Shown: positions 15,906 to 20,035 of the stretch, piece by piece
How positions within the stretch are numbered: the first letter of the stretch is position 1
Layout: every line of letters begins with the position of its first letter
Virus record (IMG/VR): IMGVR_UViG_3300043256_000250
Span: 1 to 20,035 of that record
DNA: 20,035 nt
Direction: 5' to 3' (one strand)
Origin: a virus
Program-made: the position numbers and the translations under genes
Notes under the pieces: generated by a model
What the model was told of the DNA's origin: nothing
Seen by the model: only the letters and a program-made list of their open reading frames with translations
Database searches by the model: none

Positions 15906-15933
15906 TTTCGTATAGATTGAATTTATATGGAAT

Positions 15934-16071
15934 TTGTTCAAAGAGATTTTCTCCCGACAAACGACAAAATCCCTTCAAAGAGATTTGAGATTTGTTCAAA
16001 GAGATTTTCTCCCGACAAACGACAAAATCCCTTCAAAGAGATTTGAGATTTGTTCAAAGAGATTTTCTCCC
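15934..16071. repeat. 58-bp tandem repeats, family A
   Basis: Two full 58-bp units and a partial third: TTGTTCA recurs at 15934, 15992 and 16050. Each unit holds AAAGAGATTTTCTCCCGACA, then AACGAC, then a hairpin (15967-15986 in the first unit: AAATCCCTT, loop CA, AAGAGATTT). The left-arm CCC faces GAG, which gives one C-A mismatch on the plus strand but a G-U wobble on the minus strand. The period is not a multiple of three, and no real gene crosses it. The array lies between the cassette terminator and the tail promoter. Confidence 0.9.
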
Positions 16072-17297: not shown

Positions 17298-17328
17298 CAA
17301 AGATAAACATATTTATCATCACTACAAA
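17298..17328 (-). promoter_or_regulatory. Bacteroidetes-type promoter for the cassette
   Basis: On the minus strand, TTTG (17325-17328) is followed after 19 nt by TATCTTTG (17298-17305). The upstream box lies inside the last codons of the large terminase gene. The next gene starts 22 nt past the lower box. Confidence 0.75.
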
Positions 17329-18479
17329 GCTTTTTGCCCTTTTCTTACAAAAGGCTTTAATACTTGCATGGTTTTATATCTTGCCCCGTCTAGTAAGTGG
17401 CAAAATGCATCAATAGGGATTTCTCCTTTTTTATCCAGCCAGATCCATTTATTTAACTCCTGTTCTAAATTCGTGCTTTCGGGGGTTATTATAATCTCAT
17501 AACCTGTAATCTCTTTTATGTCCTCCACTATTTTATTTTTTGGAAAACCGTGGATATTAAATCCTTTTTTGGCAAGGTCTTTGATAGTCCGCTTTGCCGA
17601 ATTGTCAGCTGCAATTAACTTTTTGTCTGGTACCCTTGCTTTTAACCTGTCCCCCAGTTCATCAGTTGAGAGGTTGTTTTCGTAAAGTTCCTCATGCCAA
17701 TATATTTTCTTTGCTTTCTTATCGACTGCCACTTTAACAAGTGCATCCGGGTCTGTTACCCCGAAGTCAAGACCGTAACCAAACGGTAAAGTTTCATCAA
17801 ATTCACCAAAGCGCCAATTTGTAAAAATTGCACCCTCCAGCTGCCCAAGTTCACCAAGCCCATAGACCTTCCACCAATTTTCAAAGCCTGGTTTATCCTT
17901 TTTGGCTAAAAGGTTTTCTTTCTCCCTTTTGGGCAGGTAGGGGTTATCTAAGAAAGTAGATTTGATTAGCACATAATCGAAATTAGGCATGTGCTTTTCA
18001 TGCAACCAAAATTCTGCCGATGGGTTGAAATCTATAAAGGTTGCTATACTTGTCCGGGCGTTCATCAGCTCAAAAATCTTGTACGCTATCCTTCTATTTG
18101 CTTCATTGATATAAAGTATTTCACGCCGGGGGCCGGTTGCTTTCGCCTCGTTGCCTTCGATACCTACAAAAGTAAACTTGCATTTACCTATAAAATATTT
18201 GTTTTCTGATTTATTGCGGACACTTGCCGGGTCGATGCCCTCGTCTGTGAGAACATCCTCAAAATCCTGTATAGCCCCTTCTTTAAGGTGGGGTAAAGCA
18301 TAAGACGCAATAGTTATCCGCTTGCGGCTCTTGCTATATTTAGCGATGTTGTAAAGTAATTGTAATATTGATACATTTTTAGAACTGCCCTGCCCACCCT
18401 GGTTACAAATTAGTGTTTGCGTACCTTTGTATTTTAAATAAGCCGCAAGGTTCCAGCTAAATACTTCAGTCGTTTTCAT
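17322..18479 (-). CDS. terL: Terminase large subunit (TerL)
   Basis: A 385-residue packaging motor that cuts and pumps phage DNA into proheads. The ATPase part has a divergent Walker A, GGQGSSKN (28-35, Lys34), where most relatives have GGRGSGKS. Walker B is ILYINEAN (121-128) with Asn125 and catalytic Glu126, and FNPS (151-154) fits the coupling motif. The nuclease part shows the RNase H-like acids: Asp238 (GLDFG), Asp292 (ADNS) and Asp364 (LLDGARY). Only about 27 residues precede Walker A, so the enzyme is compact. The start overlaps the 44-residue ORF by 14 nt; downstream the gene overlaps a promoter. Confidence 0.92.
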   Translation of the reverse strand: MKTTEVFSWNLAAYLKYKGTQTLICNQGGQGSSKNVSILQLLYNIAKYSKSRKRITIASYALPHLKEGAIQDFEDVLTDEGIDPASVRNKSENKYFIGKCKFTFVGIEGNEAKATGPRREILYINEANRRIAYKIFELMNARTSIATFIDFNPSAEFWLHEKHMPNFDYVLIKSTFLDNPYLPKREKENLLAKKDKPGFENWWKVYGLGELGQLEGAIFTNWRFGEFDETLPFGYGLDFGVTDPDALVKVAVDKKAKKIYWHEELYENNLSTDELGDRLKARVPDKKLIAADNSAKRTIKDLAKKGFNIHGFPKNKIVEDIKEITGYEIIITPESTNLEQELNKWIWLDKKGEIPIDAFCHLLDGARYKTMQVLKPFVRKGQKAL

Positions 18480-18605: not shown

Positions 18606-18780
18606 TTAATCCCCCTTCATTATTTTATTATAAAAATTAGTTGCTTGTATTGTAGATTCCTTGGAAGTTTCCCCCAATTTATTATGTAATTTATCTTCCG
18701 GTCTTTTAACCATTGTGACACTCAAAACATCTTTAAAAAAAACCCTCAATAAACTCTTCGTAATTACTTTCACTGCCCAT
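18606..18780 (-). CDS. Small ORF split by an 8-T run (57 residues if joined)
   Basis: From ATG at 18780 the frame reads MGSESNYEEFIEGFF and stops inside a run of eight T on the coding strand (18735-18742, A on the plus strand). Skipping one T joins it to KDVLSV and the in-frame ORF starting MVKRPEDKLHNKLGETSKES (ATG 18713, 35 residues to 18606). The joined product is 57 residues, starting 5 nt after the TerS stop and ending 5 nt before the next ATG. The exact spacing at both ends supports one gene with a sequencing error, a broken gene, or a programmed shift on the T run. Otherwise only the 18606-18713 ORF is coding. Confidence 0.4.
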
Positions 18781-18785
18781 AATAT

Positions 18786-19274
18786 TTAATCTCCATCCAT
18801 TAGTTCGTTCAGGTTATCCTGTGTTATTTGGTCAACCACTATTATAGTAGTTTTTAATTTTTCACCCCCAGTGGTGTGGTCTACTTCGTGGCGGTCTGCC
18901 CACTTTTGGCCCTTCTCGGGATCGATCCTGCCCCTCCTGTTCTTTAGCCAAATGTTAATCGCCGCAACGTCCGGGACGACGTGTTTTGTAGTCGTGGTCG
19001 TTTCGTAATCGTCCAGGGATTCTTTAACCTTTATCTCGTCATAAGTATATCCGTTAGCTCTTTTAAACAGGCTCTTAGTTACTTGCATGTCCGCAGTTTC
19101 CTTGCCCCTTTTAATGGACTCAAAGAATTCTGGTTCTGCTATCTTCCAATTGTTGACAGTTGTTTCGGTTACGTTGAAAAAACGGGCGAATTCTTTATCC
19201 GTTGCTCCAAGTAAAGCAAGTTCGTAAACCTGTTCATTGTATTCTGTTTTATATTTCGTCGGCTGTCCTGCCAT
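18786..19274 (-). CDS. terS: Terminase small subunit (TerS)
   Basis: A 162-residue DNA-binding packaging protein that recognises the phage start site and directs the large subunit. Residues about 10-50 form the helix-turn-helix: EYNEQVYELALLGATDKEFA then FFNVTETTVNNWKIAEPEF, the normal terminase pattern. A central helix DMQVTKSLFKRANGYTYDEI (about 62-81) would form the oligomer. The C-terminal part holds VPDVAAINIWLKNRRGRIDP and a WADRHEVDH segment, also common in this family. It starts 3 nt after the 52-residue ORF. The upstream TTGTTTAC cluster is the obvious candidate target, by analogy with lambda, where the small terminase binds sites just upstream of its own gene. Confidence 0.85.
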   Translation of the reverse strand: MAGQPTKYKTEYNEQVYELALLGATDKEFARFFNVTETTVNNWKIAEPEFFESIKRGKETADMQVTKSLFKRANGYTYDEIKVKESLDDYETTTTTKHVVPDVAAINIWLKNRRGRIDPEKGQKWADRHEVDHTTGGEKLKTTIIVVDQITQDNLNELMDGD

Positions 19275-19277
19275 AAC

Positions 19278-19436
19278 TTAAAAATTTTTTATCCATTCGT
19301 CAACCCTCTCCTTAGTCGCTTTGAGTCTTTGGGACTCCATCGCTTTTACAACTGCCCCGCGAAGGTCCCTGTTAATCAATATCTTTTTATCTCCTATGAA
19401 AAAATACTTTTTTGTTTTGGGCGGTTTTAAAATCAT
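19278..19436 (-). CDS. Small basic ORF, 52 residues, unknown
   Basis: The ATG-initiated ORF of 52 residues begins MILKPPKTKKYFFIGDKKIL and ends KATKERVDEWIKNF, 3 nt before TerS. A TTG at 19478 would add 14 hydrophobic residues but lies upstream of the promoter, so I do not favour it. The TACCTTTG box ends three bases before this ATG, so a transcript from that promoter would be leaderless, or might miss this ORF and serve TerS only. The composition is basic and mildly helical. The family is not recognised. Confidence 0.5.
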   Translation of the reverse strand: MILKPPKTKKYFFIGDKKILINRDLRGAVVKAMESQRLKATKERVDEWIKNF

Positions 19437-19439
19437 ATG

Positions 19440-19471
19440 CAAAGGTATAAAATTAACAATAAACCACCAAA
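19440..19471 (-). promoter_or_regulatory. Bacteroidetes-type promoter for the terminase unit
   Basis: On the minus strand, TTTG (19468-19471) is followed after 20 nt by TACCTTTG (19440-19447). The spacer contains GGTTTATTGTT (19465-19455), 11 bases identical to 19791-19801 in the TTGTTTAC region, so a regulator of that region could also act on this promoter. Confidence 0.7.
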
Positions 19472-19511
19472 CCCGCAACCCATACCCTCCATTTTGCCCT
19501 GAAAAAACCCA

Positions 19512-19861
19512 TTGTTTACCACACCTGTCTACCTTGCAGCGTTTTTGTAAACAACAATTTAAAGCCCTTGTTTACCGCTCCGGCCTTTAAAATCAACCTT
19601 TCCTATATACTAACGGGGTTAAAAGCAACAATAAACAAGACCTCCTAGAATATATAATATACAATATACTAAAATTCTATATTATACATAATGCTATATT
19701 TACTATAATATATTACCCTATTTATTGTTTATCTTGTTTACATCTATCAAAACCCCCGGTTTTACTGGGCGGAGGCGTAAACAAGAATCGGGTTTATTGT
19801 TTACATCTTGTTTACCTGAAATGGAAAAGCCCTTAAAATCAAGGTCTTACAATGTAAACAA
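19512..19861. other. TTGTTTAC cluster around an A/T island (origin, cos/pac or operator candidate)
   Basis: This stretch holds no gene. TTGTTTAC occurs at 19512, 19568, 19734, 19797 and 19808 on the plus strand and at 19547, 19777 and 19854 on the minus strand; TTGTTTAT occurs at 19725 (+) and 19631 (-). Between them, 19649-19715 has only seven G/C in 67 bases and an inverted repeat (TATAATATA 19653-19661 with TATATTATA 19678-19686). The longer box TTTATTGTT is seen at 19627 (-), 19721 (+) and 19793 (+). A small hairpin, AAAACC-CCC-GGTTTT, lies at 19749-19763. Repeated boxes beside an easily melted island resemble an origin with iterons. The position upstream of TerS also fits a packaging site. 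Confidence 0.65.
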
Positions 19862-19864
19862 CAT

Positions 19865-20035
19865 TTTTCTCCCGACAAACGACAAAAACTCTTTGAAGAG
19901 TTTTGAGATTTGTTGAAAGAGATTTTCTCCCGACAAACGACAAAAACTCTTTGAAGAGTTTTGAGATTTGTTCAAAGAGATTTTCTCCCGGCAAACGACA
20001 AAAACTCTTTGAAGAGTTTTGAGATTTGTTCAAAG
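19865..20035. repeat. 58-bp tandem repeats, family B, running off the window
   Basis: Three units start at 19865, 19923 and 19981; the last is cut by the window edge. They match family A outside the hairpin. The hairpin (19885-19904) is AAAACTCTT, loop TG, AAGAGTTTT: nine perfect pairs. Unit 1 has TTGTTGAAAG instead of TTGTTCAAAG, and unit 3 has CCCGGCAAAC instead of CCCGACAAAC. Confidence 0.9.

What the first reader, a model, noticed from the sequence alone, without database searches (positions are those of the whole stretch)
19512..19861. Dense TTGTTTAC boxes flanking an A/T island upstream of terminase
Eight exact copies of an 8-base box (five plus, three minus) and two one-base variants lie within about 350 bp, on both sides of a 67-bp stretch with only seven G/C. 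Two pairs are 9 and 11 bp apart, about one helical turn. A longer box, TTTATTGTT, recurs on the two sides in opposite orientation and again inside the terminase promoter spacer. Iterons plus a melting region suggest a replication origin; the place just upstream of TerS suggests a cos/pac site like the gpNu1-binding R sites of lambda; the copy in the promoter suggests control. I do not know a described system with this box.
Basis: partly seen in the sequence, partly recalled or inferred. Interest (0 to 1): 0.68.

Follow-up and report, generated by a model that had tools for sequence, protein, structure and literature searches.

The report
Phage replication origin with TTGTTTAC iterons
The repeated 8-base boxes around an A/T-rich stretch are very probably the replication origin of a Bacteroidota phage, built like the origins of staphylococcal pathogenicity islands and probably read by the phage's own VapE-type helicase; the same layout recurs in tailed phages of several bacterial phyla, most lineages with their own box.

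Summary
In detail: eight exact TTGTTTAC boxes and two TTGTTTAT variants flank the most A/T-rich stretch of the genome. The window is part of a phage of about 37 kb whose contig, G001, ends inside the same 58-bp repeats at both ends. Eight of its ten TTGTTTAC sites are here; simulated genomes never put more than two in 350 bp. All 12 other viral contigs found only through the phage's VapE-type helicase carry a TTGTTTA[C/T] cluster. Ten of them have boxes pointing away from each other across an 85-114 bp, mostly A/T-rich gap. The cluster is tied to VapE, not to the terminase: it lies beside terS of at least two families, directly 3' of vapE in others, and some genomes hold two. Phages with more distant VapE have the same layout with other boxes (TGTCTCA, TGTTGACA, TGGATAC, CGTTTAC, CAACCGA). 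VapE matches the SaPI initiator PriRep1 (7PDS, E=4e-68) and ends in a predicted winged helix. Best reading: a SaPI/PICI-type origin that VapE binds and melts, moved away from vapE to the terminase side. The cos/pac reading is not supported. Nothing was measured at the bench; binding and origin firing are inferred.

The parts
19512..19519 (+). TTGTTTAC iteron 1
   Evidence: exact match
19547..19554 (-). TTGTTTAC iteron 2
   Evidence: exact match
19568..19575 (+). TTGTTTAC iteron 3
   Evidence: exact match
19631..19638 (-). TTGTTTAT variant, island-proximal left box
   Evidence: core architecture
19639..19724 (.). A/T-rich spacer between the inner boxes (86 bp, 81% A/T), probable melting region; its 67-bp core 19649-19715 is the most A/T-rich stretch of the genome
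19725..19732 (+). TTGTTTAT variant, island-proximal right box, 9 bp before the next box
19734..19741 (+). TTGTTTAC iteron 4, tandem partner of 19725
19777..19784 (-). TTGTTTAC iteron 5
19797..19804 (+). TTGTTTAC iteron 6
19808..19815 (+). TTGTTTAC iteron 7, 11 bp from iteron 6
19854..19861 (-). TTGTTTAC iteron 8
19440..19471 (-). Bacteroidota-type promoter match TTTG-N20-TACCTTTG for the small ORF/terS/terL operon; TTTATTGTT (19455-19463) lies in the spacer
19278..19478 (-). small ORF (52-66 aa, unknown function) between the origin and terS
   Evidence: no Pfam or PHROGs match
18786..19274 (-). terS, terminase small subunit (phrog_309)
17322..18479 (-). terL, terminase large subunit
19865..20035 (+). 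58-bp tandem repeat array bordering the origin; it continues at the other end of contig G001

Best explanation
Region 19512-19861 is a replication origin of the phage. The boxes are iterons. The C-terminal winged-helix domain of the phage's VapE-type primase-helicase (off the window, G001 26876-29221) binds the two groups of boxes that point away from each other across the island. Helicase rings assemble there, melt the A/T island, and replication starts with the phage PolA, SSB-like protein and the other early proteins. Shown by sequence: the boxes, the island, their layout, their restriction to this locus, their conservation with VapE in relatives, and VapE's homology to the SaPI initiator PriRep1. 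Inferred: that VapE binds this box, that the island melts, and that replication starts here.
For: Eight of the ten TTGTTTAC sites in the 36.9-kb genome are in this 350 bp. All 12 other contigs found through the VapE protein alone have a TTGTTTA[C/T] cluster; ten have boxes pointing away from each other across an 85-114 bp gap. L154 has all nine boxes of its cluster as TTGTTTAT, a concerted change expected if one cognate protein reads them. Relatives carry the cluster directly 3' of vapE (L031, L087, L070, L110, L099) or between the early genes and terS (L128, L126, L058, window). Named phages with more distant VapE have the same layout with other boxes in the vapE 3' gap: phiFL4A, LWP01, Bacuni_F1, AJG77, SamW, phiCDKH02, Dulem virus 37; in each, no shuffle of 500 reached the observed count. 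Elizabethkingia phage TCUEAP1 has two TGTCTCA origin-like arrays, before terS and before the early operon. Across 26 cores the gap is 103 +/- 7 bp. VapE matches 7PDS by sequence (E=3.8e-68) and by fold. The predicted C-terminal domain has winged-helix topology and is among the most divergent parts of VapE.
Against: No binding, read-depth or start-site data. GC skew does not help: it follows gene orientation, and the detrended minimum in G001 is at 35,094, near the divergent early promoters, about 2 kb away. In this genome the cluster is about 8 kb from vapE, not directly 3' of it. The left arm in the window has one variant box where most relatives have a tandem pair. VapE proteins with only 29-34% identical C-terminal domains share the same box, so the protein-box match is not simple. 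Six other VapE phages examined lack a clear iteron array in the vapE 3' gap: BD26P5, BT50, BK735P2, BT401P3, PM116P6 (seen only by eye) and the Oscillospirales phage, which has three partial boxes.
Confidence: 0.86

Rival explanations
1. cos/pac packaging site: TerS binds the boxes and TerL cuts nearby, as gpNu1 does at the lambda R sites.
For: In this phage, L128, L126, L058, L043, L147 and P2559Y the cluster lies just upstream of terS.
Against: The same box lies beside terS genes of phrog_309 and phrog_1482, and of genes with a weak phrog_51 match or none. In L031, L087, L070, L110, phiFL4A, LWP01 and Bacuni_F1 it lies beside vapE, kilobases from terS where terS is annotated. Second copies lie before the early operon. 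The set found through VapE always has the cluster.
Confidence: 0.06
2. Regulatory operator array: a phage repressor or activator binds the boxes to control the early/late switch at the terminase promoter.
For: The array sits between early and late genes, and TTTATTGTT lies in the promoter spacer at 19440-19471. Second clusters lie before the early operon.
Against: The small HTH genes of G001 have relatives in L146 and L128 but were not found in most other box-bearing loci. The constant 103 +/- 7 bp A/T-rich gap between boxes pointing away from each other suits strand opening better than repression. In L031 and L087 the cluster follows vapE.
Confidence: 0.06
3. Origin-linked iterons that act mainly in copy control or partition, with the true start elsewhere.
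For: Iteron arrays of plasmids can serve copy control (general knowledge). The adjacent 58-bp repeat arrays are unexplained.
Against: Only one cluster exists in this genome, and it holds the most A/T-rich stretch of the genome between its arms. The layout equals that of published PICI origins.
Confidence: 0.04

Closest known systems
SaPI/PICI replication origins with their Rep or Pri-Rep initiator (PMC6092414; structure 7PDS, PriRep1)
   Same: Two sets of iterons flank an A/T-rich region. The initiator is a homologous VapE-type helicase (E=3.8e-68) with the same C-terminal fold. Box sequence differs between lineages.
   Different: Found in a full tailed-phage genome with head and tail genes, not a satellite. 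Here it is about 8 kb from vapE and in front of the terminase operon. TTGTTTAC is a box not described in the papers searched. Several relatives carry two copies.
Phage P4 ori/crr with alpha protein type I iterons (from memory, not tested)
   Same: Primase-helicase initiator with a C-terminal winged helix; short iterons in both orientations; two cis regions.
   Different: Sequence relation of the iterons and alpha protein was not tested here; P4 is a satellite; P4 does not use a phage PolA/SSB module.
Lambda cosB R sites (gpNu1)
   Same: Repeated short sites upstream of terS.
   Different: Here the boxes follow the replication module rather than the terminase; no cosN or packaging end is shown.
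Streptococcus thermophilus phage Sfi21 ori (from memory, full text not available)
   Same: Noncoding origin downstream of a phage primase gene.
   Different: Not compared at sequence level here.

Membership tests
[quoted passage not shown]
   published definition
SaPI/PICI-type origin | cognate Rep/VapE initiator helicase in the same replicon | tested here: met
   VapE at G001 26876-29221; PF05272 E=1e-80; 7PDS E=3.8e-68
SaPI/PICI-type origin | origin immediately 3' of the rep gene | tested here: not met
   about 8 kb away in G001; met in relatives L031, L087, L070 and in phiFL4A, LWP01, AJG77
SaPI/PICI-type origin | carried by a satellite island without its own structural genes | tested here: not met
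   window encodes portal, protease, tape measure and terminase
SaPI/PICI-type origin | initiator binds the iterons and drives autonomous replication | not testable with these tools
   needs gel shift and plasmid maintenance
cos/pac site | position fixed next to terS | tested here: not met
   cluster lies away from terS in many relatives and is duplicated before the early operon
cos/pac site | box tracks one TerS family | tested here: not met
   phrog_309, phrog_1482 and weakly or not assigned TerS beside the same box
cos/pac site | packaged DNA ends map here | not testable with these tools
   no reads available
lambda-type origin (O iterons) | iterons inside the initiator gene | tested here: not met
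   boxes are intergenic; vapE is about 8 kb away

The most novel reading that the evidence does not exclude
The origin's place next to the terminase is functional: the same box array serves replication initiation and also hands replicated DNA to the terminase or times the late switch. Phages with two copies (before the early operon and before terS) would use one origin for early and one for late replication.
Probability: 0.12. Interest if true: 0.75.

Novelty: new variant of a known kind. Interest (0 to 1): 0.57.

Why it matters
[quoted passage not shown] Here the same organisation appears in tailed phages of Bacteroidota and of hosts in other phyla, with a different box in most lineages and a homologous initiator. 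That points to a widespread phage origin type, lets origins be found in metagenomic phages by gene context, and offers natural pairs of initiator and box for working out the recognition code of VapE winged helices. It also suggests a phage source for satellite origins, or the reverse.

Tried and rejected
GC skew as an origin test: uninformative, it follows gene strand. VapE scan of genome contigs: no relatives confirmed. 58-bp repeat in genome contigs and viral contigs: found only in this phage. Full-length VapE model: low confidence (pLDDT 71, pTM 0.39), used only for the fold match. Mapping box specificity onto VapE domains: the C-terminal domain is among the most divergent, but identity does not cleanly follow the box. 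A CGCG-rich tail in many islands is not universal and is absent in the window. Helical phasing of the gap: weak (p about 0.02, loci partly related).

Full report
What was checked. The island's 67-bp core is the only place in the genome with seven or fewer G/C in 67 bp. In simulated genomes of the same dinucleotide make-up no 350-bp stretch held more than two exact boxes.

The genome. The window is a fragment. Contig IMGVR_UViG_3300037247_000922 (G001, 36,926 bp) is identical over all 20,035 bases, and both of its ends lie in the same 58-bp tandem repeats. The map is therefore probably circular or terminally redundant, and G001 nearly complete. In G001 the late genes run one way from the box cluster. 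The replication genes run the other way: VapE-type helicase, PolA, DUF2815-like SSB, DUF2800, VRR-NUC, SNF2 helicase. A short early group (103 aa, DnaQ-like exonuclease, 71 aa) leads to the repeats and the cluster. The host is probably a member of the Bacteroidota: the promoter match TTTG-N20-TAnnTTTG and a relative, Croceibacter phage P2559Y, with 64% identical VapE, both point there.

Conservation, found by box. Many share the G001 replication module.

Conservation, found by protein. To avoid selecting for the box, relatives of VapE were fetched by protein alone. All 12 other contigs carry a TTGTTTA[C/T] cluster (L152's cluster was found outside the fetched part). In ten the core is the same: minus box(es), gap of 85-114 bp, plus box(es). 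L146 has a looser, wider arrangement, and L150, a 13-kb fragment, shows only a four-box group. L154 has nine TTGTTTAT boxes and no TTGTTTAC in its cluster.

Position. The cluster follows the replication module, not the terminase. It lies directly 3' of vapE in L031, L087, L070 and L110, between vapE and VRR-NUC in L099, and between the early genes and terS in L128, L126, L058 and the window. Neighbouring TerS proteins belong to phrog_309 or phrog_1482, match phrog_51 weakly, or match nothing. L147, L153, L155, L156 and P2559Y carry a second, similar cluster before the early operon. In P2559Y the two islands share a stretch of about 39 identical bases, so the origin seems to have been duplicated within the genome.

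Other boxes, same layout. Named phages with 40-51% identical VapE were then read. In Enterococcus phiFL4A, Listeria LWP01 and Bacteroides Bacuni_F1 the densest repeated 8-mer of the whole genome lies in the gap 3' of vapE (TGGATAC, TGTTGACA and CGTTTAC boxes). Paenibacillus AJG77, Corynebacterium SamW, Clostridioides phiCDKH02 and Dulem virus 37 show the same. In each case no shuffle of 500 reached the observed box count. Elizabethkingia TCUEAP1 has TGTCTCAaaTGTCTCA, about 103-110 bp, TGAGACAttTGAGACA both before terS and before the early operon. BD26P5, BT50, BK735P2 and BT401P3 showed no iterons in the tested gap, and none were seen by eye in PM116P6. The Oscillospirales phage has three partial boxes (not significant), and BF503P4 has a loose TGGCA-rich region. 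Across 26 measured cores the gap is 103 +/- 7 bp.

The initiator. VapE matches the solved protein annotated 'Similar to D. nodosus vapE' (7PDS) by sequence over residues 366-714 (E=3.8e-68) and by fold; Foldseek lists 7PDS as PriRep1 with dsDNA. The predicted C-terminal 150 residues (pLDDT 81) end in a strand-helix-helix-strand-strand winged helix. Its best hits are 7PDS, followed by weak hits to eukaryotic winged-helix DNA-binding domains. This domain is among the most divergent parts of VapE, as expected for a domain that reads different boxes, but C-terminal identity does not cleanly follow the box, so the assignment of recognition to it is inference.

Mechanism. Best reading: VapE binds the arms, forms helicase rings that face each other across the island, melts the A/T stretch and starts replication. 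That this works like a SaPI/PICI origin is well supported. It is not filed as a PICI origin, because two features fail: it is not directly 3' of rep in this genome, and the replicon is a full phage. [quoted passage not shown] the present data argue that it is common in VapE phages.

Limits. No experiment was run. GC skew is uninformative. The 58-bp repeats beside the origin are unexplained and were found in no other record of the two collections scanned.

Noticed in passing
19865-20035 and 15932-16071: Two arrays of a 58-bp tandem repeat (TTTTCTCCCGACAAACGACAAAA...); the first continues for at least 670 bp at the other end of contig G001. No match in other viral contigs or in bacterial genomes at the pattern used; function unknown.
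   Followed up: partly
18606-18773 (-): A 55-aa ORF between terL and terS resembles residues 330-358 of the phage's own portal protein (59% over 29 aa), perhaps a leftover of recombination.
   Followed up: partly
L159 (Elizabethkingia phage TCUEAP1) 239-373 and 24889-25114: Two near-symmetric origin-like arrays with TGTCTCA boxes, one before terS and one before the early operon, in a phage of an opportunistic pathogen.
   Followed up: partly
L154 3696-3985: Whole iteron array shifted to TTGTTTAT with none of TTGTTTAC: a natural variant for testing the recognition code.
   Followed up: partly
islands of L151, L155, L043, L058, L161, L163: Right part of many islands carries an alternating ACGCGCGCGTA/TACGCGTAT tract next to the A/T stretch; absent in the window and L153.
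   Followed up: no
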